A DNA stretch of 64,000 nt, from positions 2,418,001-2,482,000 of the forward strand of contig NW_026570224.1 of the NCBI RefSeq assembly GCF_019649055.1. Direction: 5' to 3'. The first letter of the stretch is position 1. Each line of letters begins with the position of its first letter. This stretch comes from Paramacrobiotus metropolitanus. Lineage: Eukaryota; Tardigrada; Eutardigrada; Parachela; Macrobiotidae. The notes beneath the pieces were generated by a model, which was not told the DNA's origin, ran no database searches, and worked only from the letters and a program-made list of their open reading frames with translations. Shown in pieces: positions 35,422 to 64,000 of the stretch. A program made the position numbers and the translations under genes.

Positions 35422-37421
35422 ATGATGCGTTCAAAGGTGATAATAGCTGGATTGCCGGCATGGATTGTATTACTGTTGTCGTTAATATTCATTACGGGCG
35501 CTTTTTCCCAGCTGACCTGTGGTGGACCTTACACAAACTCGATAAGTGCTGCCGTAACGCCGGGTACAACGGTACGAATCTAAAATAATGATACTTCTTT
35601 AGTTTTTTAAAGCGTTTTTTTTTTAATTTTTTTTTAATTTTCATGCGCGGTAAGTTTTTAAAAGTGCAAAATTATATTTTACTTGTTCTGTATTTTTATC
35701 CATTATGAATTTATTATTTTTTTAATCAGCACATAGACTATTTGTATATTATACTGAGAACATAATTATGCTATACAGACCTTTTTTTATTTTAGACAGA
35801 ATTATTGCGATGATTTTGCTTCTTTGCCAGAATTATGCATATCTATTTTAAATTGTCTTCGTGTTATCATTGTGTTATCATCGTGGTTGTTAATGTAGAT
35901 TGGAACAGTGACAACGACAAGTTCGAGTGGTCAAACCGTTTGGTATACCATTCCAGATGCCAGTGTTAATCAGTATTTGAATATCAATCCTTATACCGGC
36001 GTTATCACTACCAGCAGCATTATTCAGTCATTTAATTTAAACGGAAGAACATCCTTCCAGTTTAATGTGCAGTCCACCGACGCTACTGGAGCGGTAAGTT
36101 CCTAATAAACAATACATACTCGTTTCATGCGTACACGAGCGCAGTATGAGTATTGGTAATAATCCAGAGACTACCGCGAATAGCATTTTTCTTCCTACTG
36201 AGTTGAGTTAAAAAATGAAGAGTCAAATTTCAAATTACAGGGAGCAAATTATCTAGATATGTTTTGCTCATACCAACGTTTCCCAGAAGGACAAAATTAA
36301 TGAATGATTTTTGTTGTTGCAAAAACAAAATTTGATCATGGCCAATGGAGATTTAGTGCATGTCAAACATATTCGACGGAAATTAATGCTTGATCTTAAT
36401 ATAATTATTCATAAGCAACAAGTCGATCTAACTATTGTATATGTACAGAAGCCTTATCTTCTTATCCGATTTCATAATTCATAAATCCTTCTTATCCTAG
36501 TTCGACCAGACTTGAAGTCCCTTTGGGGTTGTCTGCTCTTTTGCCGTAATAATAGTAATAATAATGGTGAATGCATTACCATTGTAGACCTGTACGAGCA
36601 TGGTGACCTTAAACGTTGTTGGAGCAGCAGCTGCCACAGCAGTGGCTACTAGCAACACAGCGGTCAACTCTGCCCTGGGCTTCGGCAGCAGTCTGTTCGG
36701 TGGCTCCGGGCTAGTGGTCTTCGGGAATCCATATTACTACTGTGATTACTGTGGCGACGGATACTACTGCTATAACGGACAATGCTACGCTCGTGTAGAC
36801 CAGAATTACAATAACTACGGAACCGCTTTTACCCAGAATTCCTATTCTTTCTCCACATCCGGGTGCACCACCGGAAGTAGTGTGGGCACGGTGTCGTCCT
36901 CCGATAACGGCCGGTATTCCACCAGTTCCGGTCAGTTTGCCATTTCCAATTCCGGTGCGATTACTATAGCCAGCACCCTGTCTGCCGGAACGTACACGTT
37001 CTACGTGACCTCATATAGTAATTATTACGGATATCTATCAACGGCCACGGTAACAGCTACGGTTAGTTGCGGCAGTGGCACTAGTAGCAGCACCACGACA
37101 TGTGCAATTACCATTTTCGGACTATGTTACAATCAGACTACGACAACAAGTATCACGGGAACCGTGCCGACCTTTTCGTCCAGTGCGTATACTTTCACAT
37201 CGACATCGTGCTCATCTGGAACGACTGTGGGAACCGTTACAGGAGTCAATGTTACCTCGTATTCTATTAACTATGGAGGGAATAATTTTGCAATTAGCAG
37301 TGCGGGAAATGTTACATTGGCTTCGACATTAACAGCTGGAACGTACAGTGCCACGGTGGTTGGCACCAGTAGTTCCGGTATTCAAACTGCAGTACCGATC
37401 ACAGTTACGCTCAACTGTTGA
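35422..37421 (+). CDS. Secreted cadherin-like protein A with one CX4C module (new family)
   Basis: Three phase-0 exons, 35422-35571, 35899-36093 and 36588-37421, 392 residues. A signal peptide (AWIVLLLSLIFITGAFS) is followed by three beta-sandwich domains. Each has the cadherin-like order G-x-V, Y-x-I, F-x-I/L-N, G-x-I/V-T and a C-terminal strand. Each ends at a cysteine, and domains 2 and 3 have a partner cysteine near the start (TSGC, TSTSC). Between domains 1 and 2 is an Ala/Gly/Ser linker and CDYCGDGYYCYNGQC. The protein is rich in Ser, Thr, Gly and Tyr. No cadherin calcium motif (LDRE, DxNDN, DxD) is present, so calcium-dependent adhesion is unlikely. No transmembrane segment or anchor is present, so it is secreted. 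It is the first of four tandem relatives. Unlike the others, it has no clear furin-like site. A structural extracellular or cuticular role is a guess. Confidence 0.75.
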
Positions 37422-38791
37422 GTGTTACTATTTTTTTATTGATTATTTATAGCATGGATTTGTAGTGCGCGGCATTTTGTATTAACCATTGCCCATTCCT
37501 TGCAACACGAAATATAAAAAAATGTCACTAAATTATTTTCTATGTGCAAATACTGCACTTCCATTTTAAGTTATTCGGCTTACAATTAGTGCATACGCGT
37601 ATGTCCGCTACTTCAACTGTTTACAACAGTTTATTGGAGAGCGTGCAGAATGTGAATATTCTTGCACATTTTACAGTTCGTACGAGAATAATAGTTTTAC
37701 AGATGTATAAAAGTGTTACTGCAGTAGAAAAATATCGGTAGTCGTGGGTCATCATTGTCATTCCGCAATCAAGTTCAGGGTTCAGTTAATTTCTGTAATG
37801 CACTTTCAAGTCAATTTTCGAGAAATTTTGTAACAAATACTATGGTTTCTTGTTAATACTATGGTTTCTTGCGTTGCCCAAGGTATTCAGTACCGCTTAA
37901 ACATAAGTAGTACTCATATCTATACTGGTGGCGAATCGAAAACAGCACAATAATTTACAATATTATAAGCCAAAGAAACAAATAACAGTGCGATTTACTT
38001 GTACAAGAATTTTCTAGTGGATTTTTGTGCTGAGTGTTGTCTATACAGCTACGCATCAGCTCGTGAATGTTCTCCCGAAATTTCAAGGTTTACATAAAAT
38101 ATGTTGGTCGTAGTAATAGTTATGAAATATGTCCAAGAGAAGCACCTTGCATAACGTAGTCAAAACATTAAGCATATTGCACAACACAACAGTGCCGCAT
38201 ACGGATTTTGATGACCTGTTGATTACTTGCTAACGGCTCTCAGGGAGTGATGTTTTCTTTGGAGAGATACCAGGTTTAAGATATGCTCAATAAATCCCAT
38301 GCAACTTTGGATATATAAAAAATTTTGGCAGGTACCTTGAGAACTGTATTGAATTCGAACGCGCACTTTTCCGAAAGATACGATATCTCTTCGTTAACGT
38401 TACCTTGCGTACACAAATAGATAGCTCACGTTTGGCATCTACATCATGATCTTCATGGTCAAGATCACCCAAAATAAGCGAGATAAATGCCAAATCTTCG
38501 CTACTATGACACTACGTAGAACGGTCAGGGATTTAGGCGATCCGTGTTACACATTCTGTAATTATTTACAGCTTTGCGAAAACTGCTAGGATTATATTAA
38601 TGAAGTGTACTTCATATCAATCTGGTTCTCCTCCTTACGTTAGTTAATTGAAACTCGTAATCTAAATCCGTGGAATTCTCAATCCGGCATTTAAATTTAC
38701 TTTACACCTTTACGGTTTTGAACTGTGGAAAACTTGATTATTTTTTGTTTGCTGCATTGCATTTACTCTGGTTTACTTTGCTTATTTAAAG
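37422..38791. other. Intergenic between cadherin-like genes A and B
   Basis: No exon chain is found. A 17-bp direct repeat lies at 37836-37852 and 37855-37871 (AATACTATGGTTTCTTG). Confidence 0.45.
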
Positions 38792-39549
38792 ATGTTTTGG
38801 AGTATGCTTTCGGCGTTGACCTTTTTGTTCTTAGGGTTGATCCAGGTATGTACTATGTATGCAGCGGCATGTATTTTTTGATGAATATTATTATTTTACT
38901 TTTTCTAACCCGCGCCATCAGTTTCCCGAATTAATTACAGCAGCATGTACACATGGTATGTTCCGTACTTGCCTGATGACACTACTGTATTAAAAGAGTT
39001 TTTAATTTAATTATGTGCTGTAATTATCCTTTGCACACCTTGTGGAGTTAACTGCCTTATAAATGTACGGGGCAATGTAATAAACAGGGAGTGTATTATA
39101 TCTATATTTAGAGTCATCCAGTCGAAATGGACGACATCATAACTCGCGAAAGGCGCCAAATCTACAGTGGTAGCGGCGGCGGTTTGTATTGTTCTAATGG
39201 ACAATGTTTCAATAGCTTGAATTCTGTTACCGGGTTTGGAACAGTCTGCTACAATGGAAACTGCTACAGCAATTCCGTTTCGTCCAACAGGAATGGAATA
39301 GGCTGTTTCAACAGTGTGTGCTACAATGCGCCGACAAAACAGATTTGCTACAATGGCATTTGTTGCGACCCAATGTCGGCTTATAATACAACAACCAATA
39401 ATTATATGTGCTACAACGGGCAGTGCTTCCTTCTGAGCACTCCTAATTCATATCCGTGCTCTGCGTCCACTAACGGGAATGTTTATTGTGTATTCGGAGG
39501 TTGTTATACGATCAACCGACCTAATTATTACAATTCATACCTTGGATGA
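38792..39549 (+). CDS. Secreted CX4C-repeat protein B (new family)
   Basis: Two exons, 38792-38845 and 39112-39549, phase 0, 163 residues. Exon 1 is almost purely a signal peptide (MFWSMLSALTFLFLGLIQ). Exon 2 starts with a short propeptide ending RERR, a furin-type site. The rest has no cadherin-like domain and consists of CX4C modules: C-SNGQ-C, C-YNGN-C, C-FNSV-C, C-YNGI-C-C, C-YNGQ-C and C-VFGG-C, spaced by Asn/Ser/Tyr-rich loops. Its cysteine region aligns module by module with the C-terminal half of protein C (41731-42312), including CYNAPT-K/R-QIC. It seems to be a version of the family that lost, or never had, the cadherin-like domain. Function is unknown; a cross-linked extracellular material is one possibility. 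Confidence 0.72.
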
Positions 39550-40921
39550 AATTCTCTGGCAGCGAAGGTGCAAATGTCGTACCTTGTATTCTTTGTAGCT
39601 TGTACCGCCATTTGTGCTCTATATAAGCGAATTGAAACTGGGTCTTTATAAAATTATATATCTAATTAGCCTGTTGCGCAAAAAATTTTCAAGTCAGTAG
39701 AATAAACTCTTTGTAATAACGGCGATGTCTTCACCGGCAACATTACTATAAATTATTGTATCATCGCGGAAATGTTGTATGCATATCAGCGTTTTATTTT
39801 ATTCAGAAAAAATATATCTGCATAGAGTTAGTGCACATCAATTCGGCAGAACTTCAAATATGCAGCTTATCATAATGGTGAACCATAGTGCAGATTAAAA
39901 AGAAACCGGATCATACACAATCGCAGATACATACGGGTCCAGACTTACAATTAGGCTAAATAATCAAAATTACTGTAGATTTAAAAGTTGAACATCATGT
40001 ACAGCGATTTTAAGAACTACGCATTATAAAGATCAAGTTTAGCGCAAAAAACACAAAATATTTGTATATCGTATGCTTAAAACAAGTAAAGGTCACATTT
40101 CGAATCGAGCTTGCTGGAAAATCATCTCCGTAACATATAATTAACGGTGTCGACAAATTTCGTACGAAGTACTGCATGCAAATGATTGTGCTATAGATCG
40201 TACACCTAAATACGCAAGGATAAAAGTGAAACAAGACTTAAGTTTTTGCATAGTCAGACTTACTAGTTACCGTAAAAGCTTCCGCTTACCATTAGCTAAT
40301 CTAAGATGTAGTCATATATTTTTATGAGGTAAAGTCCTTTTATGCTCCTTTGACTTCGAAAACGCACTGTAAGAAAAAAGAACCTTATTTTATTCTAAAC
40401 CTGTATCAGACTGATCCGAGCACTAAACATAAACTCGAAAACAAAATCGTAACAAGGGAATGCTACGAATACTGGTTTTTCGTGCAAACTAGAAAGCACG
40501 GTATTGTTCTGATCATATGATGCAGTGGAACATTGAAAGACTGCCGGCAAAACACATGTGGGAAGCCAGGGAAGGGAAGGGGGCATACGACATATATATG
40601 TATATATAATGGTTCACGCAAAACTTGCACCGAGTTTGCTTATTGAATTCCTTCGATCTTGACTTCACTAACATCTTGCTCGGTAAATCATATTTCTCGG
40701 ATAGACTGCCATGGGATAGTCAAATGACTTAATCTAACCCACCTAAATGCTTTATTACAAATATTCCGATCAGAAATATTATAATTTAATGTTGTTATTT
40801 TGTTCCAGTCTGCACACAAGAGACTTCCGGCGTTCAAGCTATTGTATGACCGTTTTGTGATAATTCTTGATTACATCTGTGATTCTTGTGGTGGTTATGT
40901 GTAAATTTACAGACAGTAACA
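39550..40921. other. Intergenic between genes B and C
   Basis: AT-rich. Minus-strand frames at 40010-40234 and 40395-40586 have no splice or family support. Confidence 0.45.
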
Positions 40922-42312
40922 ATGTTTTTATTAGCGAAATTTTGTGTGCCCTTTTATTTTGCGTTTCGTGTGCTGGCTGTGGAGCAAGAAAACGGGATCG
41001 TCGTAAGTTAAATTCAGTTTATCATGCAATATAAAGGTTTTTTTTACTAACCATTAGCAACGCAGCAGCTACTGTAGGACGTAGGTCATCCACTTAGGCA
41101 CACTTAAGTCAGCATAAGCTCGTATAAATAAACGTTTCTGCTTTGCAGATTGAAGAAACTTTGGATCGGTACAAGCGTGCTGGAGCATCTCCCGTTTTTA
41201 GCTCGCCTAGCTATACATTCGCACAGAGCAGTTGTGGTTCCACGGGCCCAATTGGTCAGGTTTCGGCAACCAGTCCTGATGGTAGTTCTGGAATAACGTA
41301 TTACACGGATAATCCGTACTCGATTAAGGTGTGAATTGATCCATTTAAATTGCTAACGCTTTGGGAGTACCAGTGTAGCAATCTTGCTAGTAATTTATTA
41401 CTTCATAAACGTCAAATATTTATCCTTATACGAGTAGTAGCAAACTTTTGCTCTATAAAGATAAAAATTCAGCGTTCAGACTGTGTGCAAATTCTGTACA
41501 TGCTAAATGTAACCATATATCCGTCAATTTTGCTGGATAAATTATTCTGAAAACAAAATAAATGTTTCCACAAACGTGACCGCAAACGTTTCAAATAACT
41601 GTGTCAAATGATTTTTAAACAAAGTAAATGTTTCTCATAAATATTTCTGATGAATATATCTGAAAACAAGAAGGCTACGCATGTAGTAGTGAAATGAGAA
41701 AACGAGAAAATGTAATTGACCTTTTTTCAGGTGGATCCCGTAAGTGGACAAGTGTCAGTGTGGGGCGCCGCTATCAGCACGACCATCACGGTTAATGTCT
41801 TTGCGCGAAATGCCCAAGGTTCCGTCAGTGCGCCGGTAACGATCACTTCCAGTTGCGCGGCTCCGGCAGCAGCGCCCGCCGCGGCCCCCGCTGCTGTTGC
41901 AGCCGGTCCCTCGATTGTTTCTTACACATCATTCGACAACAGTCTCAACGCAGTCAACGGACTCTACTGTTATAACGGCCAGTGTTTCAATGGGTTAAAT
42001 GGAGTATCAGGCTGGGGCAGTGTTTGTTATGCCGGCACATGCCGATCGAACTCTATCCGTACACGGAATTCGGGAACCTCCGGGTGTTTCAACAGTTTGT
42101 GTTACAATGCACCAACCCGACAGATTTGTTACGGAGGAAGCTGCTGTGATCCGACGTTGGCCTATACATCGCCATCCAACAATAATTACCTGTGCTATTC
42201 CGGTCAATGCTATAATCTCAACAGTAACACGGCTGGCCCCTGCGGAACGTCGACCTGGAGAGGAAATAACTATCTGTATTATAACAATGGCATTGGTGGC
42301 AAAAAACGATAA
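40922..42312 (+). CDS. Secreted cadherin-like plus CX4C-repeat protein C (new family)
   Basis: Three phase-0 exons, 40922-41002, 41149-41328 and 41731-42312, 280 residues. The signal peptide (MFLLAKFCVPFYFAFRVLA) fills most of exon 1. Exon 2 begins with a short propeptide ending RYKR. One cadherin-like domain follows (PVFSSPSYTFAQSSC, then GQVSATSP, YYTDNPYSIK, VDPVSGQVSV, VTITSSC). Its first and last strands carry cysteines placed to form a disulfide. An Ala/Pro linker (AAPAAAPAAAP) leads to five CX4C modules: C-YNGQ-C, C-YAGT-C, C-FNSL-C, C-YGGS-C-C and C-YSGQ-C. The tail is GGKKR. There is no membrane segment and there are no calcium-binding cadherin motifs. This gene unites both parts of the family and so links A and D (cadherin-like) with B (CX4C). 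Confidence 0.78.
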
Positions 42313-43156
42313 ATGACAAATTTTGTAAATATGTAAATGTACGCAAAAATATTTAAATTTTCCTCACTCTTTGTCTCTGTATCAGACTGTATGTGTACCA
42401 TAACCTGATCAATTATGTATTTAACATAGTTAGTTAGAATCTTCCGAAACTTAATACAATTGATCTCTGCATAAAAAGCCAGCTTTAAGGTACGGTTGAA
42501 AACTAGAAGAGAACACAAGAGCAACTGTTTAAATTTTTGACAATTACATTCAACATGTATTATAAAAGCACTTCCATTATTTATTTGTTTGAAAAACCGG
42601 GAATTAATTTGTCCGGACAATGCGCTCCATAAGTATTGTAAGTGCCCAAAAATTCTACTCGTAGCTTCTCGGCTGGTACTTATATAGCTTTATTTACGCA
42701 GGGTATACCGGATTATTTTCGACATTTTGCCACTACATTTCTACCATACTTACAATACATATTATCGTAAAAATGCATCTAATACACAAGTCATAATCTA
42801 GTAATTATTATTATTGTTGCTTTGCCACAAAAAATTAATACGATTGTAGCCCGTAAACAAATTGAGCAAGTTACAGTAACAAGTTGCTTGGGCACATGTT
42901 GATTTTCTAAGTTGTCTAAACATCTGTTGTCTTAATTGATACAGTGATCAACAAAGTGTTACAGTGCCGTACTTGTTTAATGGTGCAAATGTGAAACGAC
43001 ACACATATTAACTATTGAAATTCTACAAATCGGGTAGACTGTTAAAGCGATTAGTTTAATTTGTCAAAGCTTGACATTTGCATTACGGAAGTATTGCTGT
43101 GTTTCTGGTCATACTAATAACTCGAAAAAAAAAATTCCAACACACCTATTGCTACA
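42313..43156. other. Intergenic between genes C and D
   Basis: AT-rich, with no supported exon or repeat. It should contain the 3' UTR of C and the promoter of D. Confidence 0.45.
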
Positions 43157-44073
43157 ATGCGTACGCCTTTACATTCAAGATTTTTCGTAATTGCCATACA
43201 ATCAGCTGTATTCGTAGGTCATCTCCAAAGTGCTTCGGTAAGCTGTGGAATTTACCGTAATTTTATAATTTTTTGTTTCAGAATTTTATTACCATATCTT
43301 TTCATTTTTCGTCATAAAGTTTGCTTTTTCTCACACTGCGTTCAGCAACTAATACTTTAGTCCTTATTTATTTACAGATTAACGGGGAAGATGTCAGCTC
43401 CCGACTTAAACGTGGCGGAACCGCTCCGGTCTTCAATCCTCCGGTTTATTATTTCCAAACACCAAACTGCACTTTTACGGCACCCTTTGGAAAGGTCTCC
43501 GCTGCGAGTCCGACAACCGGAACACGGGGATTGGTATACTACACAGACAGTCCGTACGTTAACGTCGATTCTCAGTCGGGATACATCTCGCCGCTGTACG
43601 ACATGAACTACAGTAATTTCGTAATCGTGGTGACGGCACAGAATGCCTATGGAACAGCCAGTGCGCCAGTGAGCATTCGGTCCACCTGCCCCAACTTTTG
43701 GAATCCCACCACCACACCGTCGCAACCCTATATCAACACCTCTCCGTATAATGGACTGGGTCCATATCAGTATGGATACAATACCGGAAGTTCGGTGTTG
43801 GTGTACAATTCGGCCAGTAATTCGAACAATATCAATGGAATGACCAGTGTCAGTGGTCCACTGTGTACCGGAAGTTATACATGTGTAAACGGACAGTGTT
43901 CGTATTCGATGGGATCAAATAACGCGCTATGCAGTGGAATAGGAAACAGCAATACTAATGTCGTGAACAGCAACAGTATGTACTCCAACGTTGGAGCACA
44001 ACCAGCTATGGGAACAATAGGACGGCAGTATTTTAATTACGCATATGGCATGCGCAGCAATGAACGCTATTAA
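43157..44073 (+). CDS. Secreted cadherin-like protein D (new family)
   Basis: Two exons, 43157-43237 and 43378-44073, phase 0, 258 residues. Exon 1 is 81 nt, the same length as in gene C, and encodes a hydrophobic leader (FFVIAIQSAVFVGHLQSAS). Exon 2 opens with a propeptide ending RLKR, a furin-type site, then one cadherin-like domain: PVFNPPVYYFQTPNC, FGKVSAASP, YYTDSPYVNVD, GYISPL, VSIRSTC. The two exons that encode this domain in gene C are fused here, so one intron was lost or gained. The rest is Asn/Ser/Tyr/Gly-rich with one cysteine module (CVNGQC) and few other cysteines. There is no membrane anchor. Of the four, it is the nearest to the Fat-type gene. Confidence 0.76.
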
Positions 44074-45630
44074 TTCAATTCTTTTGTGTGTATTGCGCAT
44101 TTGACGTTTTGTTCTTGTCAAAAACAACATTTCCTTAATTAAAACAGAATACTTTAGAAACCGTAATTACAATCGATAAGGAAATACATTGTACATGGGT
44201 ATAGCGGCTATGATTTTCATTGTACGTATCTACTACATTACTACTTAGTAATTCGCATCCATAGGCGGTCATACCTAAATGTTCTCAGCAGGTATTCTGC
44301 ATTTAATCTAGTTTACAGTAACTGTAATCTGATAACAAAGTATTATTATTGCCTTGAAAAGATTTTAATAAAGGAAGCCGGCGAATAACAAATAATTATA
44401 ATGATAAAAGTAGAAAGTAAAAATCAGATAGGCGTTTCTCCTTGCTCTGGCTTCTCTATTTTTGATACACGCCAATAGCGTCTTGCCAGTCAGCGATCAT
44501 CTTCCCGATCCCGCCTCCCCCGTTCGCCCGCCTCTGCAGGCTTGCACTGTGTTCCAAACTGCATATTTCTGCCGGACTGGTCAGTTCACTACGTACAAAG
44601 CTGAACTTGATCTTCTTAGTGGATTTGGACTTCGAAATTCAATCAGCTTTGCTGAGCCACTTCATTCCTACGATATACTTTTGTGTCTCAGAAGCCACAG
44701 TTGGTCGCCATAAGTAAAGCTAATCATGCTCTTTGCAAATCTTGCATATTGCACATTTTGCATATCGTGTTTCCAGTTGTCGGTAATATCGCACAACTGC
44801 TGGTGCTAATTAGAAAGCGCTGATCAGTGCCAGCAAGACATTATCCCAATAATTTGCCTGAACCGGCGCATCGACTTTTTGCAAAATTGTGGAATATCGT
44901 TTTGCATGTTGGTGGATAAGCACAGAGGTAAGTCACAACACTGCTTACGCTTTATATAATTGTCAGTAAATACTCTGTAATTCAGAATTAATGCCACTCG
45001 TGCTGAGTTTAATTTCATCTGAAAGTTACTTTTCTGTCATTTCTATAAATTCTATAATCGTCTGTTTTTCGAAACAAAAAGTTCATGAGTTTTGCTAAAT
45101 CCGCTATCATCTTTAATAAACTACCGTTGTTTTAAAAGTTTCGTTTAAAGGTCACGAATATCCTTTGAATACGTACGAAAATATGACAATATTCAAATAA
45201 TTGCTCACTTTAATTAATCTTCTGTTACTTACCGAAATAGGCAATAATTGCGCAAACAGTTAATGGTATTGTTGGTATAAAGCATAAATCGTAGAGAAAT
45301 ATGTGATAAAAACGGTTCATTTTAATTCTAGTTCACTTTTCAGTGTATAAAGTTCTGGTTATAGCAAGTAGCACGCAGCCGACTACTTTAATGTGTTACA
45401 AACGATACAATAAGGCTAGGAATTCTTTGACACATGTGTTTCTGCAGGTTGCAACGTTTTATTAGTATCCTTCTTCTTTGTCCTGATTTCACGCAGATCA
45501 AACAGCGAGTGTTTGCCCAAACGTTTCTGACACGACGCTGTTACAATATATTCGGACCGTCCATGAAGCAATATCTTTTATTCCGTTATCCTTTTCATCA
45601 TCTGTCCGACTTTCTCACGCCGGCCGTATA
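44074..45630. other. Intergenic upstream of the Fat-type cadherin
   Basis: Should hold the 3' UTR of gene D and the promoter of the giant cadherin. Short frames at 44462-44713 and 45434-45631 (plus) have no support; the second ends exactly at the cadherin start codon. Confidence 0.45.
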
Positions 45631-48600
45631 ATGAGCAAAACCATCACAATGCCGTTAAGCGGTCGTCTGTGGCCGTTATTCCTATTATTTTTTATGTATC
45701 TTTTTCACCCATCGTTCCCGGCATCCTCCACCGCCCTCCACTTCAACGTTCCCGAGGAACTTCCGGCCGGAACATTAATCGGACGCATTCCGTTGCGTTC
45801 TAATGAGCGTTATCATCTGACCAACTATCACGATCTCTTCGCGCTCCATACAAACGGAGAGTTGTCGCTAATGAAAAAAATCGATCGCGACATTCTGGTC
45901 AAAGATAGCTTTGAATTGGTGATTGTCAATCAAGATCGGACCGGTTTCCCCATAACGGTCGTCCTGCATGTCATGGATATCAACGATAATGCACCGATAT
46001 TCCCCCATCGCGTCGCCAGTATTACATTCCCCGAGACCGATCAGCTCGGGCAACGGGTGTTGTTGGAACCGGCAGTCGATGCGGACCGACCCCTATACGG
46101 GACCATTGCCCAGTATGATATCGTTGCGGGCAACGAAGAAAAGAAATTTCGCTTAATTAAAACCCAACAGTTTCTCCATATTGAAAACATCGCAGTACTG
46201 GACCGCGAAACCAGGGAATTTTACATTTTAAATATTAGCGCCACGGACAATGGCTTTCCCCCGCTCACCGGCTATTTCCTGTTGAATGTGACGATCGGGG
46301 ATATTAACGACAATGCGCCGGTTTTTGATCCCTCTGAATATGTGGTGGCGGTCAGTGAGAATGCACCGGCGAATTCACCGGTGCTGAAAGTGCACGCCAC
46401 GGACAACGATCAACCGGAAAGCGCCAATTCCCGAATTCTGTACACTCTGACGAATGCGTCACAATTTAGTATCGATCCGCATGGTATAGTGCGGACTACC
46501 GGAAGTAAAACACGCTGTCCGCGGAATAAATGCCAGAATTCGGAGTGCACACGGACATGTGTCCTGATGGTGGAGGCACGGGATGCCGGACAACCGTTTC
46601 TGACGGGAAGGGCCTACGTCTACATTACCCTTATAGATGAGAACGACAATGCACCGGAAATTACATTTCGCTACTATCCATCGTCAGCCGAATATGCAGC
46701 AGTGGCCGAAGATGCCGGTAAGTTCAAAACTTATTAACTTGAAAGTGTTTGGCTTTTATTCTCCGTGAAACCATTAGTTAATTAATTTGTAAATTTAATT
46801 AAATTTTTAATTTTGCGTAGGTTGTTGGCATTTGCGGTTTTATTGATTTGAATGGCTGTTGCCTAATAAATCCTTTAAATTAATTTTAAAATTTTATGCG
46901 TCGAGTTAGTAAATCAACTTCCGTTAGATACGGTATCAGTAGGAATTTACGAGGAAATCAGCTGCAGTTGCCATAATAATTCTGCCGGTCGTTTTTAATA
47001 ATCTGAATTTGCATAATAATGTTTGACAGCGAACGGCACGACGGTAGCGGTGGTGAGTATCCGGGACCAGGATGATGGCATTAACGGGCAACTCGAGCGA
47101 TTATTTATCAGTGGTGGTGATGCGGCCAATCAGTTCCGTATCGATATGTCCCCCATGAACAATAAGCACAATCTGGAGGCATATTGGAAATCGTCTTCCG
47201 CACCAGTGCAACAGTTGGCCTACCTGCGAGTCAACGGGAAACTTGACCGCGCCCGTATGTCCAAGTACAATCTCTGCATCACTGCCGTGGACAGTGGCCA
47301 TCCATCATCACTTAACAGCACCAAATGCCTAATGGTACTTGTCAATGATCTTAATGACTATGCACCGCAATTCCAATCTGCCCAGTATTCGGCCACTATC
47401 AATGAGAATGTTCCAGTGGGAAGTTTCGTTCAGGCGGTATGTGTATATTTCTCAAAATCACTTTGCGTGCCCCAGCGCTTTAATATGAGTATATTGACCA
47501 CAACTTGAGATAAATACGAAGTGACTTCAGTCCAAGCCAAATATTTGGAGCGCTGAATTTAGCTTTTACTACGCGTATCGTACAAAAACTGGTCATAATT
47601 GCAGAGAATCACTTTAAATCTAAATTTTTGTGGCACATTTAGAAAACATGACTATTCAGTATAGTTAAAATGACTGCATCCCACTGATTAATGAAAATAA
47701 AATTAGTCAGTTTTTAAAGTATAAATACAATATCCATATATATATGTTGCTGTTTTGATTGAAAAGATTTAGTGTGTCTATGGATTGGGACATAGGTTTG
47801 GGCAACCGATGCCGATGGGACCGGCATTAACGGACAAGTCGTTTACTCCATCGTTAGCGGTGATACGTTCAACTGGTTCTCCATTAATCGGGAAAGTGGC
47901 CTAATTAGGACCATTGGACGACCTGATCGGGAAATGACATCATCCCTGCAGCTAAACATTTCCGCCCGGGATTCGGCGCCCAATCCACGCATTAACTACA
48001 CGACAGTCCATATTAGCATCCAAGACGCTAATGACAATGCCCCGCGGTTCACAGAGTGCCCCAGAGAATTGCTGGTCACCGAGTCCAGTTTGTACACAGG
48101 GAATGCGGTTTTTGCATTCCGAGCAACCGATCGGGATAGTGGCGAAAATGCACATATATCATACCGAATGAAGACGCAGCCGGCTGATCAAAGTAGCCGG
48201 AAACTGTTTGCTTTAGATGAACAAAGTGGTCAAATGACCACTCGACACCAGCTGGACCGTGGAAAGCTGGCGGAACGGGAACATCATCGATTTACGGTAA
48301 GTACAACGCACAATTAATTACTGCACCAGTTCGGCAGATTTGCGGGTTTCATTTTGCAGTCAACAGAAAGATGAAATCTAGCCATACGGCATGATCATAA
48401 ATAATAATTAAGGTTTATGCAGTCACACAGATAGTATCAGAATATACACAAAGTCGTAAACGATGCACTACAAGTTTTTATTATGATTTGTTTTCTGAAA
48501 TCAGAAACTAAATTACTAGTAATTGTAACCTAAAACAACTGTAGTCTTACAAAAACCTTTGGCTGAAATGTTTATATGCCAATTGCAATGCACCGTTTTC

Positions 48601-51600
48601 TATGCATGTTTATGCAATATGCGGCTCCAGCATTGAGCCTACTAATAACAGTGCTAATAAGTAGTCAAAAGACTGCCGTCTCTGAATAATTAATCTGTTA
48701 TGCACCGCTTGGCAATTTGTGCGTTCTGGCAGGTCATCGCTAACGATCACGGCTTCCCGGCACAATCGTCCACCTGTGTTGTCAGTGTACGCATAACCGG
48801 CCGGCAGAATAAAGCGCCGGTTTTTTCTCCAATCCACTATGTCGTGCCAGTGCCGGCAAATGATGGACACGGCTTGGCCGCCGGCCATAAACTGACCACA
48901 GTGACAGCTAATGATGTTGATGAGGGAGACGTGATCCACTATGCAATTGTCCATTCTTCACATGATGGGATTATTGTGGATCAATTAACCGGTCTCATCA
49001 CAACTAATCACCACATTCCTTTTACATCCAAATCTGACCTCGTTACTGTACAAATTACCGCCACTGATTCCCGTGGCGCAACTGCGGCCGACCGTGCCAG
49101 TGTCCTAATTTTTCCCGTACTTCCGGAGAAAGTCTTTTCTTTCGAAACCTCAGCGTATAATTTTTCCATCAAAGAAAATTTGGCAGCACCAATTACTGTT
49201 GGTCGAATACGTCTAATCGAATTCAGCCGACATGTGCGGTACTTCTTGGACGGGAATCTTACCGAAGTAAGTTTCGTTATTTTAGATTGTGCACGTGCCG
49301 GGGAAATCTGCCTTTCGTAAAATAATTAGTTTTGTTAAAGTGAATTCTGCTTTTAACTGCTTGAATAAAAATATAAGACATCGGAGCGAGTCTGCCTTAA
49401 TTGTATAGCGTACATTACTTGTGTATTCTACAGTACAACAATGCATACAATATTTTGATATCTAAATTCTCGTGCTTGCTAGATGATGCGTATCCGTAAA
49501 GCAAACAGAATCATAATTCTATTAATAAAAGTGATATAGTGTCGTTCTCATCGCAATACTGAGTGCCGACAAAATTTCTGGTGCCGGTTTTGCGGCTTGC
49601 TCAATATTTTTATGGCTTTTTAAACAGGGAATATTCGCCTTTGATGCATCTACGGGATTTTTAATTGCCACAAAGCCACTTGACCGTGAAGAAAGAGGCT
49701 TTTACCGTATGATCTTATCGGCCGTATGTCCGCCGCATTACACGGAAACCGTCATCAGTCTCACGGTGGAGGACGAGAACGATAATGCGCCGGTGATTAG
49801 CAATCTTAAAGGCCAGCATTGTGACTACGATTGTCAGGACGACATTCCACTGCCCCTATCATACCCGCTGGGACAAGCAATTGTTACGATAGACGCTTAC
49901 GATGCCGATAACGACGGTGCCGAGCGTTTACGCTACTCTCTTCTCAATTACACCACCGATGCGCCGGCCGGCCACAGACCGGCACTGGCCGTCAATCAGA
50001 CCAGCGGATCTGTTTATCTATCGCATCCTCTGGATGTGCCACTTAACTGGATCAATATAACGGTTCAAATTTCCGATGCCGACCCAACCGGAAAGGACAC
50101 CCGGCACACTATGCAACAGTTGCGATTCCGTGTGCACTACGATGTATGTCCGGCAATGGGATTTGCACAATCCCATCGCCACATGTCACTTCCGGAAAAC
50201 ACACCACTCAACACTCGAATTATGACCTTTGAGCTACAGTGGCCGTGTCCGTGGGTGCAGTATCGCGTCGCGAAGGGGAATGATGCCGGGCATTTTGCCA
50301 TTTTCCCCGACGGACAGCTGCTGGTCAATGGCACGTTAGATAAGGAGACGCTGCCCTATTACCAACTGCAAATTGAGGCTTACACTGTAAACAGTTCCAC
50401 CTCCGTTACGCTGACACTCACAATTACTGATGTCAATAACCATGCGCCGCAATTTAATAATCATACTTATTGGTTCGAATTGGATGAAAATATGCCGGTC
50501 GGGTCAGTGGTCGGGACGGTGCAGGCCCGAGACGCCGATAACGGGCTGAATGGCCAAATCGTGTACAGGTACATCGCTAATGAATAACTACCGTATAATA
50601 TCTTTTGGCAGTGCTTAAAGAACTGCGCGTGATGCACATGTCTCCAGATCGTTACCCTTTGGATTAATTAGCTATTATTAATTTTTATGCATAACAAATA
50701 TTCAAACAAAAATAATAAATTAAACTTTTGGTTATCTGTTAAAACAACCAATCAGTGAATTTTGTAAAAATATTATTTCGAAAACATGAAAGCTAGAGAA
50801 TGTGTTTCGTGCCAACAGTAATTATTAACTTTTAATGACAGGATGCAAGGAGCCGCCGAACAGAATTATTTTGCTGTTGACCCTGATTCTGGGCACATCC
50901 GAAGTCTGGTAATGTTTGACCGCGAACGCATGCCCACGACAGCTTCCAACACATCCGGCTCTTTCCCGATAATTGTCCTAGCTAACGATCGATCGCCATC
51001 TGCCGCCCAGCATACCAGCTCCGTTAGTGTCCACGTCCACATCCGCGACCAGAACGATAACCAGCCCATATTTACACAGGAAGTTTACCAGCAAAGTGTC
51101 CGCGAGAGTTTACCAGTTGGTCAGCGCATCATCCAGATAAGAGCCCTTGATGGGGATGCATCCGCCGCCAATCGTCAAGTGACATACAGTATTAAATGTC
51201 CCGAAGAACAGCAAGTGTTTACATTGGACCCGTTGACAGGCGTCATTTCACTCTATCGTCCGCTTAATTACCACAGTCGATCGCGCTACGATTGCCGACT
51301 GTACGCATCCGATGGACACGATGTGCTTCACACATCGTCAGCTCGATTCAGACTGGATGTTATTGATGAGGATAATCAACCGCCGCGATTCCTCGCCGCT
51401 GATTACACCAAAATTTCCCTTCCGGAATCCCTTCCGGCTGGCGCGTTGCTGGTCCAAATCCAGGCCTATGATATAGATACACTGGCTTCGGAGATAGCGT
51501 ATCAGATCACCAATGGAAATGCTGATAAAACATTCCGCATTAATCGCTTTGGTCAGATTTATCTCAATTATCCCATGGATTACGAAAAAACGAAATTTCA

Positions 51601-54600
51601 CAACCTGACAGTATCGGCATGCAAAAACACTTCCGGTCTGTGCACAAGCGCCACAGTTGAAATCCAGGTGGAAGATCGAAACGATAATGCGCCGAAATTT
51701 TCGGCTTTTATGAAAAGCGCGGTAAAAATTCCGGAAAACATTCCCAACGCTTCTGTAGTAGCTACAGCGGTTGCACATGACGACGACAGCGGTTTAAATG
51801 GCGAAATTCGATACTCCATCCTTTATGCCGAGCCGGTCAATGGACATTTTGTGATTGACGAAGTCAGCGGAAAAATCATCAATACAATCGTATTGGATCG
51901 GGAACGATATAACAGCTACCGCCTCGTGCTTCAGGTCTGACTAATGAAGCTGCTCACATAATTATTAATTACAGAACGTTATATTTGTAAATTTATGTAG
52001 AACGATTTATAAGTGTGAGAATATTTCAAAACGAATGGTACAACCACGACATTATTAATTGTGTTATTCGGTGTACAGGCAATGGATTTGGCCGTACCCG
52101 AGTCTAACCGGCACACCAGTGAGAAAGTGCTGGTAATAACCATCGAAGACATTAACGATCATGCCCCGGTCTTCACGATCCCACGCTCGGTCATCGTTCC
52201 CGAATATGCCAGTTCGGGATATCGCCTGCTGACCGTTACAGCTACCGATCCCGATGCCGAACGCAATGGTCACGTGACCTATGACCTCACCCGCACAGCG
52301 GACATGGAGCGCTTCCATTTGGACCGCTACGAAGGCCACGTGTATCTCCGAGGGGAACTGGACCAGTTGGCTCCCTCGTACGCCCTCACCATCGCAGCAC
52401 GTGACCAGAGCGGCGAGGGATCACTGGCTCGCCAGAGTGTGATGACGGTGGATCTGATTGTTGTGTCTTCGCAACGCTCCGCACAATCACTAGCGCTGTT
52501 GGAGCGAGTTGAATGGACGGTGTACGAAAATGAGACACAAGGATTTGTTATCGGGAAACTGGCTGCAAAGAGCCATTCATCACACCTTGGCCCGGTGGAG
52601 TATTTTATAACGGCCGTTTCCAATTTCGCCGGAGAGGCGGTTCCGTGTGTTTTTACTATGGATCGCTTGACCGGAAAGATTGTATTGAGTGGTCAGTTGG
52701 ATGCGGATCAAGGCACAACGGGATACATTGTGAATGTATTTACGGGAATAAAAAAAGACAGAAGTTACGAGGGCATCACAAATCAGGTAAGACCCCCAAT
52801 TTGAATTCGTTATTACTCAAGAGTATTTGATGCACTCAATGATGTGTTTTGGCGCAGTACCACATCTGAAAGCTTTTAAACTTTTAATAACACGATCTGG
52901 CATATTGTAAAAATGGGTCAAATAAACTTTTCAAGGTGTAACCAATTTTTAGTGGTCTGCGGCCATCTGACAGAATTTTTATTGACTAGCGCAGTAGATT
53001 TGACCGTAAGCTAACTTTAATGGTGCAGCTGCTTGTCCTATCTTCACTGGGAGCCATTAAGTGTTTCGCTACCGCATATTATTCTTTATTTTCAAGGATT
53101 TGAGCATGCGGTGTTTATTGGCTTAGCGGTTACAGTGTAGTGGCTATTTTGGAGAATTTGTGTGAAAGAGTCGATCATAATAAGACCGCGGCCGGCAGGC
53201 CGGCGAATCGAGCTTTTTAGAGCCGCATGTCAGTCTAGGCAGGTGGGATTAGCTTGAGAGTCTGAGTTAACGGTTATTTAAAATGTCCTGCCGAGACCGG
53301 AATGACCAGTTAGTGACTATCTGCCGAGCCAATCTACATTCTTTTAAGTTGTGGATAGCGCTTGTCATAACTGGAATGGCACCAGTACCTTTGATGTCTC
53401 AAAGTAAAATTGATTAATCTACTCAAAACCATTAGACAGATCTGCTGGAAGATCGCAGCCGATACATCCACTGCGACACAAATAATATTGGGCTGTAAAA
53501 GTAGCGAAATATGTACGCTTGTACGCGTCCACCTTGCTCATTGCGCAGTGCTCAGTGGTCAGCCGCGAGGTGATGTTCACCGATCGAAGTACAGATATGG
53601 CTGGATGATCTGTCGGGCTTAAACCCGCAATTATGTGTGTAATTTCCTTTTATCGAAATTGAAAGTCTTGTTCAGAGGATACCAATACGCGTCGCTCTTT
53701 ATCTTCTGATACCACCTGCCTGTGCTGTTCAATGGCATAAGCTGGTTTTCTCGAATAATGTCGGGAATCTGGACGATTTCCTTCGGGTGCTCAGATTTTT
53801 GACATACTTCGCACTTCGAGGTATTGATAAACTTATAGCAACGCACAAAATATTCAAATGCCCTAACAATTTACATTTATTTTGAACTGCCGCCCCGTTT
53901 AAAATTTTAACTCGTCCATCTGCGCGTCTTCGAATTACGGGATGTTTTAAACTTTAAACATACCCACAGGTGAATCGATTGCGGTTCTCAAAGTTTTGGT
54001 TTATGTTCGGCAACGTAAATAACTTTTACCAAATAAATATTGAGTGAACGTGTTGTGAATAACACCGCTTTATGTTTGCATCCGATACATTTTAAAACTG
54101 CCTGAATTGGTTTTGATTTGGAATGAACCGTTAATCCTGGGCGCAGCAAGGCATGGGAACGAGGCAGAGTTTAGGCTAAACAAAAGCCCGCCGTTCCTTT
54201 ACAAATTGTTTCATTTTGTCAGGATACTCAGTTATACATTGTCACTCTTTGCAGGCTGCAGTAGTCTCTCGAAGGCTTGTATCCTTTGGCACATTTGTGT
54301 ATAATTCCATTATGAATTGATCTACGCGTCAACTGCAGTGTGCAGCACTAGTAAACACTCTATCGAACATGTTATTGTCCAAGGAGCAGGTCAGGTGTAG
54401 CTGATACACTGAGGTTTAATAAAGGCTCGGGAAAATCTTATAAAGCGGTTCTACCTATGGTTTGGGCTTAGCAAAAGATCGGCAGATTTACCTATGGGAA
54501 TTCATTGACGCGAACAAAAGGTCATTGCAAGTAGTTCAACGTAAGCGAGCTTACTCCGGCTTGCACACTGTTGCTTGTTTCAACATCTGCTTTTGGGAAA

Positions 54601-57600
54601 CCACCCGTAGCGCCCAATGAATACCGCTCAAAAGTTCGGTTAATTATAAGCAGGCTGCGTGTTCTGCGGTTTTAAGTGGACTTCCTGCTGGTACGAAACG
54701 CTTGTATTGATACTCCCAAGTATGTGGCGAACGCTGTTTGAATTGATGGTAAACTACCTAATCCCGAAACGAGAAAAGGGGTTGGAGGTATGGGTGCAGC
54801 AGGAGGGAGCTTTTTTGTTACGAATCCAGCTATTTATGTATAATCATTTACTGGTATTAATTAGCATATCTGTATATATGTGCGAGTACAAGTTCAATGC
54901 GTGAATACAGACCCCAGACAACTATATTTTTCGGAATTAAATGTACAGCTGTCTTGAATTTTAATATGTACTCATATATTATACATAAAGCTTGATCGAA
55001 TAAAATAAAACAGCAATCTAATGCGCACAAGTACTCGTATATGCAGCCCAAATCAGCAGCGCATTCGACTAATGATTTTCCCGTCTGTTGAATCCTTGAA
55101 GCCACTTGCAAAGCGCAAAGACCGAATGCATTATTTGTCCTATTTGTCAGATTAAAAGGGATTACTTAAGAAAATTGTCCGGATTGTCAGGACATGAAGC
55201 TCAGTCAATTACATCCCCTATTTGATCACCCATGCCTGTTTTTAGAGTTGCCGTTGTGCAGAACAATACAGTTCATGCTTGGCTGACCCAGTCGGAAATA
55301 TTATAACAAGTTATAGTAGCTAAATCAGACTTAATACATAATCACTGGCAGCTGGTGGGTATTTTTGCAGTATCTCCGCCAAAATGCTTGACCATACACT
55401 AGCTCGTATACACTAGCTCGTGTTTCCGAAGATCAAAATTGCGCTGCGCGTTTAGTAGGCAACATGTTTATGCTGGCCTGATTTCTTTTTCTCATTAGTG
55501 ATATTACTGGCCTAAGTGGCCGCCGAATGTGTTATCTCAATTAACCCTCTGCAAAGAGTACCTGCTGCTTGATTTCTCATCGGTTTTGGGATATCAAATG
55601 CGTGCATAGCAATTAAGTAGTCTCCAAAAACACAATAAATTCACCAAGTTGCCTGCGCAATATGACAAATGCAGTTCATAGGCGCCTGTTTAACTGTTGG
55701 GAAAAAATACGGTGACTGAGCGAGTAATGTATCCCTTGGGTGTATCCTGCTGAGAGCCACTGCAATTAAGTCTAATTTTGGCTGGGTGTAATGCATATGC
55801 CATGTCCACAGCAATTTTTGGAACTCTTCTTATGTCTGTTGCAGAAGCTGTACTGGTCAGCAAAACTCGCATGCAGTGTCCGATACGAATGCATGCGTAA
55901 ACAGTCTCGCGTCCATTGTTCGACTTGTTTCATACGCCTACACGGTTTGAGAGGCACTTCAATACTTTGCGTCGTGTTCACTAATATGCATAAATCACAG
56001 GTAAAGAAATACCAATTCTGAAGTGTTTACTACGACAATGCTCCCGAATTTTCAAGTTACGTTGCTGTTTCTCACGCGTATTGGCGATCATGTCGCGGCT
56101 TACAACTTTCGAAACGTGTAATGATTGTGCTCCTTTGTTTCTTGTCCCTGTACGTATTTATCCACAGTTCTAGAAAATCAGGTAAACAACTGAATAACGC
56201 TAAGCCCAAAAATGATATTCAAGCGTTAATTTCGGTTAAGAAACTGTGAAAGCACTGCAACAACTGCCGTGCGGCATAATCAGTGTTAAACGTTATAGGA
56301 TGAAATTTGCCTCCCGGTTGTAAAATAACAAAATTGTCCATCACCGCACAAAACAGAGATTCACAAAACTTATTATTAGTTTCACAAAATTGGGAAGAGA
56401 ATATAGCGTGATCGCCGTTATTTATCTATGGAGTGCGGTCAATAAATCATAGTCCAGCTGGCATCCGTTTCGTGGGAACAGGATAATCAAATCAGTGTGT
56501 GGCTGACCTGTTACTTTTCGTGATCACATCCCTGAATTCCCGATTCAAGCTTCCTCTAACACGGTGGCAAATGTGCAACGATTGATTTGAAAATTTGTGG
56601 TTTGCTTGTCGGGCACATCACGACACATCCTGTGGGCTGCTGAATACGATAATATAAGGTCACGGGAGATGCGATTAGCCATTAATTTGTGGATCATTAT
56701 TAACAGAATGATAGCTATTTTGCCGTAGTAAGTAAGTCCTGTTACAGACTGCACTAGTAGCATTAAATGCAATGATTCTTGCTCGTCGCACTCGAAAAAA
56801 ATGTGTTTTGAAAGATACTGCATGCTGAGATACGTAGGAAATGAACCTTACGTGCATTTTTTACTTGTTTAAATGCCTTTTCGAGTTTTTCCCACACGTC
56901 TCCGACAATTTGCAGCATAACCTTCTTCGGGTCTCAGTACTTCTATTTTAGGCTCCTCTGTATCATGTATGTACACACATTATGTTATTTATGACCGCCA
57001 TTACTTTTGTAAATTACGGCATATTTGTTATTTAACATATGCTTCCGACGGCTGAACATGATTACAACAAGTTGGATTTACGCTACACAAAATTTCGAAA
57101 GCTGCGGCCTTATTTGCGGCTTTTCATGCCTTAGTTAACTTTTCTTATAACTCGTATTCGATGCATACCTAGTAAATCAGTCCGTTTGCATTAAGTACTT
57201 ATAAGTTATACATACGTTCAGTCACAATGTCAGCATTCCGTATTGTAGATTCGCATTCGAGTCCTCTCTGTGAACAATCGCACTCCAGTCTTCTCATCGC
57301 CATTTTATCGTTTTCGTCTGGAAGAAGGCATGGGCTTGGGATCGAAGCTCGGACAAGTGGCTGCAACTGATCTGGATCGCGACGATGTGGTGACTTTCGC
57401 TATTCGATCTCCGTCAGCTAGTCAGTACTTCCGCGTTAACCAAGAAACCGGTGAAGTGTTTTCGAAATCCGCTGTTCACAACAGTACGGGCAGATTGTGT
57501 TTCCCAATTGTCGCTGATGATTCTGTACACCAAACGGAAGTCACATGCTGCATAGATGTCAACATAGCATACCCAACAAAAACCCTACCCAGTTTCACAC

Positions 57601-63600: not shown

Positions 63601-64000
63601 AGTCGGATCGGCCGGGTCATGGGTGCCGATAATGATAAAGGCGTTGCAGGAATGCTGGGATACGCATTGGTCGGACAGTCTAACAGTTTTGAGATCGACA
63701 ATAAAACGGGTGAACTGATTCTCGTCGGTGATTTGGGTGGCTTTGTGTCCAATGAAGTGATTATGCACGTTCTGCTGTCCAACTCGGCATTCCCACCGGC
63801 TGTTGGCGTGGTGTGCGATGTGTTTGTCCATGTGGTGGACGGGAACAACATGCCGTACTTCATGCAGCGCGAATACATGGTGCGGGTGAGAGAGGACGCA
63901 CAAATCGGGTCGACCGTTATCAAAGTGCAAGGTCGAATCGAAGGTGACCGGCGTCTGCAGTATATGTTAGTGGCCGGCGACGAGCACGGACGTTTTGCCG
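45631..64000 (+). CDS. FAT4: Fat/FAT4-type giant cadherin, 3' end beyond window
   Basis: Fifteen exons: 45631-46717, 47030-47436, 47796-48296, 48733-49266, 49628-50568, 50842-51934, 52079-52786, 57249-57800, 57867-58071, 58166-59052, 59163-59388, 60334-60502, 60578-60813, 61073-62631 and 62743 to the edge, about 3,450 residues. All joins agree in phase. A signal peptide (LWPLFLLFFMYLF) is followed by 32 complete cadherin repeats and part of a 33rd, with LDRE, DxNDNAP and AxDxD motifs. I favour Fat/FAT4 over Dachsous because of the length (Dachsous has 27 repeats, Fat and FAT4 have 34) and family-specific segments such as EITFRYYPSSAEYA, like FAT4. Fat is a transmembrane receptor for Dachsous acting in planar polarity and Hippo growth control. 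The EGF, laminin-G, membrane and cytoplasmic parts lie outside. About ten linkers lack the DxNDN calcium motif (for example after repeats 6, 7, 9, 15, 17 and 18). Confidence 0.88.
52787..57248. other. 4.46-kb intron of the Fat-type gene
   Basis: By far the largest intron of this gene; it interrupts one cadherin repeat in phase 0. I found no further cadherin exon or convincing nested gene. A minus-strand frame at 53846-53631 (CEVCQKSEHPKEIVQIPD) faintly resembles the zinc-binding end of a retroelement integrase and may be a relic. Confidence 0.5.
59389..60333. other. 945-bp intron of the Fat-type gene
   Basis: Joins a phase-1 donor after ENNG to a phase-1 acceptor before TPTTATTFATITV. A 110-codon plus frame runs across the donor into it but has no cadherin character and is not coding. 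Confidence 0.6.

What the first reader, a model, noticed from the sequence alone, without database searches (positions are those of the whole stretch)
35422..44073. A tandem family of four secreted proteins mixing cadherin-like domains and CX4C modules
Four adjacent same-strand genes share a signal-peptide exon that ends in phase 0, a cadherin-like beta-sandwich (A, C, D) and C-x4-C modules typified by C-Y-N-G-Q-C (A, B, C, weakly D). Gene C carries both parts and shows they form one family. I know of no named family with this architecture.
Basis: partly seen in the sequence, partly recalled or inferred. Interest (0 to 1): 0.85.

Follow-up and report, generated by a model that had tools for sequence, protein, structure and literature searches.

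The report
Disulfide-stapled, calcium-free cadherin-like matrix proteins
Four neighbouring genes of what is most probably a tardigrade make secreted proteins built from cadherin-type domains that have lost their calcium motifs and mostly carry cysteines near those places, and they belong to a much larger genome-wide set that looks like building material for a tough outer coat.

Summary
The four genes are there as described (392, 163, 280, 258 aa; six GT-AG, phase-0 introns). The beta-sandwich in A, C and D is a cadherin relative: a 28-domain profile finds cadherin structures (best chain E 1.1e-30) and matches the classical repeats of the neighbouring gene (98%, E 1.5e-13; 60 column shuffles reach at most 0.2%).

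"A family of four" is too narrow: 126 matches to the broadened domain profile (43 partial) lie in 80 open frames on 16 contigs. The genome is probably Paramacrobiotus metropolitanus. C and D group with genes of two other contigs, A with another branch.

Full-length domains lack the LDRE and DxND calcium motifs and nearly all charge; 51 of 54 carry two cysteines, two residues after the calcium-ligand Glu and at the linker Asp. B, C, D have furin-type sites. B and C share a CX4C block without Pfam or PDB match.

Best reading: secreted, convertase-processed structural proteins of cuticle or eggshell. That role is inferred; structure prediction was off, and no expression data were at hand.

The parts
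35422..35571 (+). gene A exon 1: signal sequence plus start of cadherin-like domain 1
   Evidence: hydrophobic 11-mer KD 3.11 at residue 15
35899..36093 (+). gene A exon 2: middle of cadherin-like domain 1
   Evidence: spliced A matches Pfam Cadherin at residues 44-125, E 1.5e-5
36588..37421 (+). gene A exon 3: end of domain 1, CYNGQC, domains 2 and 3, stop
36768..36785 (+). CYNGQC of A
   Evidence: pattern search; shuffles
36828..37070 (+). A cadherin-like domain 2 with two cysteines
37167..37418 (+). A cadherin-like domain 3 with two cysteines
38792..38845 (+). gene B exon 1: signal sequence
   Evidence: KD 2.29
39112..39549 (+). gene B exon 2: propeptide, CX4C block, stop
39145..39156 (+). 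furin-type site RERR of B (followed by Q)
39181..39477 (+). CX4C block of B (57 of 95 aligned residues identical to C)
40922..41002 (+). gene C exon 1: signal sequence
   Evidence: weak hydrophobic core, KD 1.90
41149..41328 (+). gene C exon 2: propeptide and first half of cadherin-like domain
41167..41178 (+). furin-type site RYKR of C
41731..42312 (+). gene C exon 3: second half of domain, AAPA spacer, CX4C block, stop
41959..42264 (+). CX4C block of C
43157..43237 (+). gene D exon 1: signal sequence
   Evidence: KD 2.41
43378..44073 (+). gene D exon 2: propeptide, cadherin-like domain, S/N/G/Y-rich tail, stop
43402..43413 (+). furin-type site RLKR of D
43426..43689 (+). D cadherin-like domain with two cysteines
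43882..43899 (+). CVNGQC of D
   Evidence: sequence

Best explanation
A-D are secreted structural proteins of an extracellular coat and belong to a lineage-expanded superfamily. Shown or strongly supported: a hydrophobic N-terminal signal sequence; in B, C, D and 11 paralogous frames a basic convertase-type site before the first domain or block; cadherin-homologous domains that, where full-length, lack the main calcium motifs and nearly all charge and mostly have a cysteine near each end; no membrane helix in A-D; Tyr/Pro/Gly/Thr/Asn-rich spacers and tails. Inferred: after secretion a convertase removes the propeptide; each such domain is closed by a disulfide between the A-B turn and the end of strand G, that is, where a classical repeat is stiffened by calcium, so the repeat becomes a neutral, calcium-independent bead; CX4C loops (B, C) and tyrosine-rich spacers let the beads cross-link (disulfide, perhaps dityrosine or quinone) into an insoluble layer. 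The most likely site is cuticle or eggshell; the data do not choose between them.
For: Cadherin homology: (score 70.2 against at most 10.5 in 60 column shuffles). Among full-length domains of the first loci: two cysteines in 51 of 54 against 0 of 9 classical repeats of the window; D+E 1.3% against 12.8%; LDRE-type motif 0 of 54 against 4 of 9; DxND/NDN 0 of 54 against 7 of 9; DxD 3 of 54 against 6 of 9; PE 1 of 54 against 2 of 9. One domain on C3 lacks both cysteines together. The Cys columns fall two residues after the conserved Glu and on the first Asp of DxNDN (the first also). Even cysteine numbers in the four mature proteins: 12, 14, 14, 6. Pro-sites; [KR]RQ in 11 of 56 paralogous frames before the first domain, 0 of 56 after the last (many of the 56 are internal exons). 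No membrane helix in A-D. Spacers of ten frames: P up to 30%, G up to 32%, T up to 33%, Y 7-16% in nine of them. Purifying selection in one paralogous pair: dN 0.042, dS 0.936 over 82 residues.
Against: No expression, proteomic or localisation data; no structure (prediction switched off). None of A-D matches a curated cuticle or eggshell family in Pfam; DEC-1_N on C is E 0.28. The cysteine pair and low charge do not hold for the whole set: the N-terminal-type domains (8 frames, and domain 1 of A) are outside the counts because they do not reach the far end of the profile; those 8 match only to position 71-82, have one cysteine, at another place, and 11-16% charged residues. In the wider set 8 of 68 complete domains lack one or both cysteines (5 N only, 2 none, 1 C only) and charge reaches 14% in one. 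dS is saturated for B-C and C-D, so no dN/dS for them. The loci were found with a Ser/Thr/Gly-rich query, which may favour uncharged members. The Cys placement rests on five classical repeats, one of them badly bounded (global alignment probability 78%).
Confidence: 0.6

Rival explanations
1. Secreted adhesion or recognition proteins (lectin-, immune- or gamete-type) that use the cadherin-like domain to bind partners rather than to build a coat.
For: The parent fold is an adhesion fold; the set is large and diverse; A to D differ in architecture; N-terminal-type domains keep charge.
Against: Near absence of charge in full-length domains, low-complexity P/Y/G/T spacers and no membrane helix in A-D fit a coat better. 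The one recent pair tested is conserved (dN/dS about 0.045), not fast-evolving.
Confidence: 0.2
2. Secreted products of a gland (salivary, cement or silk-like secretion) that act outside the body.
For: Signal sequence, convertase-type site, silk-like spacers such as YPYTTGT and PSYSAPP repeats.
Against: Nothing in the sequences tells gland from epidermis or ovary; the same data are equally compatible with the best explanation.
Confidence: 0.15
3. The beta-sandwich is not cadherin but a bacterial-type Ig or PKD module (He_PIG, Big_9, PKD) gained by transfer.
For: Some members match He_PIG (4 of 28), InlK_D3 (4 of 28), Big_9 (2 of 28), K319L-like PKD (2 of 28, best 2e-6) in Pfam at E up to 0.1.
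Against: 13 of 28 match Cadherin, best 1.1e-8; of the 60 PDB rows shown all but BT_4661 and MCG133388 bear cadherin-family names; the genes have introns; classical repeats of the same genome match.
Confidence: 0.04

Closest known systems
Cadherin repeat (Pfam PF00028; CELSR1, protocadherin-15, cadherin-23)
   Same: Profile similarity over nearly the whole domain, with the shared P-x-F start and F-x-I...G core
   Different: Full-length domains lack LDRE and DxND motifs, have hardly any charge and mostly two cysteines; no membrane helix in A-D
CREMP, cysteine-rich eggshell membrane protein of birds (PMC3068167; abstract and outline seen)
   Same: Coat protein built from short Cys modules that contain C-X4-C
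   Different: By its abstract the CREMP module is C-X4-C-X5-C-X8-C-X6; the B/C block has other spacings
Insect chorion and hard-cuticle proteins with AAPA or PSYSAP-like repeats (recalled)
   Same: Low-complexity A/P and P/S/Y spacers
   Different: No significant Pfam match to such a family among A-D (DEC-1_N on C, E 0.28)

Membership tests
Cadherin superfamily | sequence-profile similarity to the cadherin repeat | tested here: met
   Pfam cut-off (28.8 bits) passed by a C14 and a C29 frame (41.2 and 33.3), missed by A (25.8); no hit for C and D
Cadherin superfamily | calcium-binding motifs (LDRE, DxNDN, DxD) | tested here: not met
   full-length domains: LDRE-type 0 of 54, DxND/NDN 0 of 54, DxD 3 of 54; classical repeats of the window 4, 7 and 6 of 9. 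N-terminal-type domains not counted
Classical cadherins and protocadherins | membrane anchor and cytoplasmic tail | tested here: not met
   A-D: best 19-mer KD after residue 35 is 1.53 (A), others lower. Five paralogous frames on C2 (two), C12, C14 and C32 stop within about 3 to 20 residues of the last domain; not checked by transcripts
Cadherin superfamily | seven-strand Greek-key fold | not testable with these tools
   structure prediction switched off
CREMP | C-X4-C-X5-C-X8-C-X6 module | tested here: not met
   B/C spacing begins C-X4-C-X13-C-X4-C
Insect chorion or cuticle families in Pfam | match to a curated model | tested here: not met
   A-D: none at E up to 1 except DEC-1_N 0.28 on C, below its cut-off
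Coat (cuticle or eggshell) proteins in the functional sense | presence in an insoluble extracellular layer | not testable with these tools
   no proteome or expression data

The most novel reading that the evidence does not exclude
In one animal lineage the calcium-stiffened cadherin repeat was turned into a calcium-independent, nearly charge-free bead with a disulfide where the calcium site was, and multiplied into a new class of secreted coat proteins, joined to silk-like spacers and, in B and C, to a CX4C cross-linking block that has no relative in Pfam or PDB.
Probability: 0.45. Interest if true: 0.8.

Novelty: new variant of a known kind. Interest (0 to 1): 0.62.

Why it matters
Cadherin repeats are the textbook calcium-dependent adhesion module. 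A large secreted branch in which covalent staples stand at the calcium site would show how an adhesion domain can become a building material. It would also give named candidates for the protein make-up of tardigrade cuticle and eggshell, and a ready test: reduce the disulfide and see whether the domain unfolds with or without calcium.

Tried and rejected
Taxon by lipocalin/SAHS: PF00061 gave 3 matches and the best one is an ordinary fatty-acid-binding protein, which says nothing on the phylum; the assignment rests on assembly statistics instead. Genome-wide search for the CX4C block: B finds only itself, C and two weak places (E 0.13 and 0.47). The codon pattern for C[YF]NGQC occurs 8 times in the genome against 4 for the reversed control, so it is not clearly enriched; three are in A, B and C, and the other five lie in frames of 15, 15, 15, 18 and 81 aa that I take as unrelated by eye. 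Pfam scan of seven further window frames: only one weak match (ETR1_N, E 0.0077, below cut-off).

Considered and rejected: that A-D are a closed family of four; that the cadherin match is a composition artefact (shuffle and reversal controls); that the four are exons of the large downstream cadherin gene (each has its own start, signal sequence and stop; the downstream gene has its own N-terminal FAT4-type domain).

Cautions on my own counts. The profile iterated took in classical repeats of the window, so the counts come from a widened model; the homology claim rests on the A2 profile, built without them from 28 domains that I chose out of the hits. Complete domains (profile positions 6 or lower to 84 or higher) are 54 of 92 non-classical matches and 68 of 126; the rest, N-terminal-type domains included, are in no motif or cysteine count. 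For the 9 classical repeats the far limit was position 80. In the tree one classical repeat with a long branch falls among the others.
Full report
What was checked. The four genes were modelled from the raw sequence: A 35422-35571, 35899-36093, 36588-37421 (392 aa); B 38792-38845, 39112-39549 (163 aa); C 40922-41002, 41149-41328, 41731-42312 (280 aa); D 43157-43237, 43378-44073 (258 aa). All six introns are GT-AG and phase 0. Spliced A matches Pfam Cadherin at residues 44-125 (E 1.5e-5, below the curated cut-off), across both of its exon junctions, which supports the joins; the two halves of the C domain, joined across the intron, align with the unbroken domain of D (44% identity).

The genome. 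The window lies on contig C4 of a 169,799,020-base assembly of 533 contigs. The published Paramacrobiotus sp. TYO assembly (PMC8277472, passages seen) has 170,483,395 bases in 684 scaffolds, the longest 4,484,941; here C1 is 4,484,719 and C533 is 10,170, as expected if short scaffolds were left out and the rest slightly revised. PMC11191345 (passages seen) gives 170 Mbp for P. metropolitanus; its main text has no 'cadherin', 'cuticle' or 'eggshell'. I take the genome as this tardigrade; this is an inference from assembly statistics, and no marker gene was tested with success.

The domain is a cadherin relative. Single members score weakly in Pfam (A exon 3 alone 0.017; C and D none), but of 28 chosen members 13 match Cadherin at E up to 0.1, best 1.1e-8. 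A profile of these 28 matches PDB cadherins at the top: CELSR1 1.1e-30 for the chain (best repeat of that chain 1.6e-5), protocadherin-15, cadherin-23; 149 sequences reach E 1 and of the 60 shown all but BT_4661 and MCG133388 bear cadherin-family names. Profile to profile, it matches 11 classical repeats of the neighbouring gene with 98% probability, E 1.5e-13, score 70.2 over 84 columns. In 60 column shuffles the best probability was 0.2% and the best score 10.5, and the reversed alignment gave 0.2%. Used alone against the window frames, the same profile picks seven classical repeats in five frames at E below 1e-3.

What changed in the domain. In the first loci 54 complete domains were compared with 9 complete classical repeats of the window. 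Two cysteines: 51 of 54 against 0 of 9; of the other three, two have the first only and one has neither. D+E 1.3% against 12.8%; K+R 1.0% against 8.4%. LDRE-type motif 0 of 54 against 4 of 9; DxND or NDN 0 of 54 against 7 of 9; DxD 3 of 54 against 6 of 9; PE 1 of 54 against 2 of 9. In the wider set of 68 complete domains 60 have both cysteines, 5 the first only, 1 the second only, 2 none; mean charge is 2.3%, the highest 14%. These counts leave out the N-terminal-type domains: the 8 found match only as far as position 71-82, have a single cysteine at another place and 11-16% charged residues, and domain 1 of A is of that type. In a global profile alignment with five extended classical repeats (78% probability) the first cysteine falls two residues after the conserved Glu of the A-B turn and the last one on the first Asp of the DxNDN linker; the first placement is the same. 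In classical cadherins these residues come together round the calcium ions between repeats (recalled). The cysteine pair therefore stands about where the calcium cluster would be. That the two are bonded is inferred from position, joint presence and the even cysteine counts (12, 14, 14, 6).

The family is genome-wide. Searches with A exon 3 (35 matches at E up to 1), a C157 protein (33 at E up to 0.01) and a C2 protein (48 at E up to 0.01) led to the loci. In these (L015-L018 and the later L031-L035 not included) together with A-D, 126 domain matches at E below 1e-3 lie in 80 open frames on 16 contigs, counting C4; 43 of the 126 span fewer than 70 profile positions and some are halves of domains split by introns. 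The profile used for that count had been iterated and reaches classical-type domains, so it is a count of the broad set; frames are exons, not genes; C340 looks like a near copy of C116. Long members have a domain of the N-terminal type and go on with arrays of cysteine-bearing domains split by spacers such as YPYTTGT, PSYSAPP and GGYGG repeats. Five frames were looked at for their ends: on C2 (two), C12, C14 and C32 they stop within about 3 to 20 residues of the last domain, three of them with the C-terminus DIG. No membrane helix was seen in A-D.

Place of A-D. In a tree of 80 domains (91 columns, most forks weak, one long-branched classical repeat inside the others) C and D join (SH-aLRT 92) and go with the three domains of C13 and C157 (94); A2 and A3 are closest in identity to C29 domains (52 and 53%); A1 lies with five N-terminal-type domains of other contigs (86). 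The C13 and C157 genes have the plan of D: one domain, then a Y/N/G-rich tail; the two C157 frames have C-x4-C strings in the tail (CIGNSC, CFNGYC; CYGNWC), the C13 frame has none. Putative signal exons that end in phase 0 were seen upstream of several of these genes by a simple hydrophobicity scan. So B, C and D are one local set, with C linking B (CX4C block, 57 of 95 identical) to D (domain, 40 of 87 identical); A is a neighbour from another branch that carries a single CYNGQC.

Propeptide. B, C and D hold R-X-K/R-R (RERR, RYKR, RLKR) between residues 30 and 39, just before the mature part; A has none. Of 56 paralogous frames whose first match starts at the beginning of the profile, 11 have [KR]RQ in the 30 residues before it and none in the 30 after the last match; many of the 56 are internal exons. 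Cleavage by a furin-type convertase is inferred from the motif.

The CX4C block. B and C share 57 of 95 aligned residues; dS is saturated. There is no PDB match at E up to 1, no Pfam match in B and no further copy in the genome beyond two weak places.

How it probably works. See the best explanation. Shown: architecture, homology, loss of calcium motifs and charge in full-length domains, cysteine placement, pro-site motif, absence of a membrane helix in A-D. Inferred: the disulfide, the cleavage, cross-linking, the coat role and its site.

Novelty. Paper searches, of which only the listed part was seen: tardigrade/secreted/cadherin-like/cuticle (15 of 64 listed), tardigrade/eggshell protein/chorion (15 of 95), tardigrade/cuticle protein/proteome/cadherin (3 of 3), tardigrade/secretome/cuticle/eggshell terms (12 of 24), tardigrade with cadherin (25 of 27), cadherin-like structural proteins (12 of 143), tardigrade/cuticle/chitin/sclerotization terms (10 of 658). 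None of the listed titles or abstract starts describes such a family. PMC9145152 names Cadherin_repeat once in a list of domains (passage seen). The library lacks most subscription journals, and no eukaryote protein database was at hand, so presence in other animals, and an earlier description, remain possible.

Noticed in passing
window 45487-64000, + strand: A large classical cadherin gene (many PF00028 repeats, FAT4-type N-terminal domain, E 2.3e-15) begins about 1.5 kb downstream of D on the same strand and seems to run beyond the window.
   Followed up: partly
L021, L027, L028 (contigs C2, C12, C14): Three unlinked frames of the wider set end in the same short C-terminus, D-I-G then stop, after G/P-rich or short sequence.
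   Followed up: partly
L024 and L025 (C116 and the 42-kb contig C340): Very similar members on two contigs, possibly two haplotypes or a recent duplication; the C340 copy is split over more frames than the C116 copy.
   Followed up: no
L010:1825-2256 (contig C3): A domain that lacks both cysteines while keeping the rest of the profile, as expected if the two form one bond.
   Followed up: partly
L005, L009, L010, L011, L022, L028, L030: Eight N-terminal-type domains (a C near the start, then YT[GA]) keep 11-16% charge and have one cysteine; the following exons of several begin with YCE or YCD, a possible partner.
   Followed up: partly
window 18080-18688, - strand: A 203-aa frame that resembles CDV3 homologues from memory; Pfam gave no match at E up to 0.01.
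   Followed up: no
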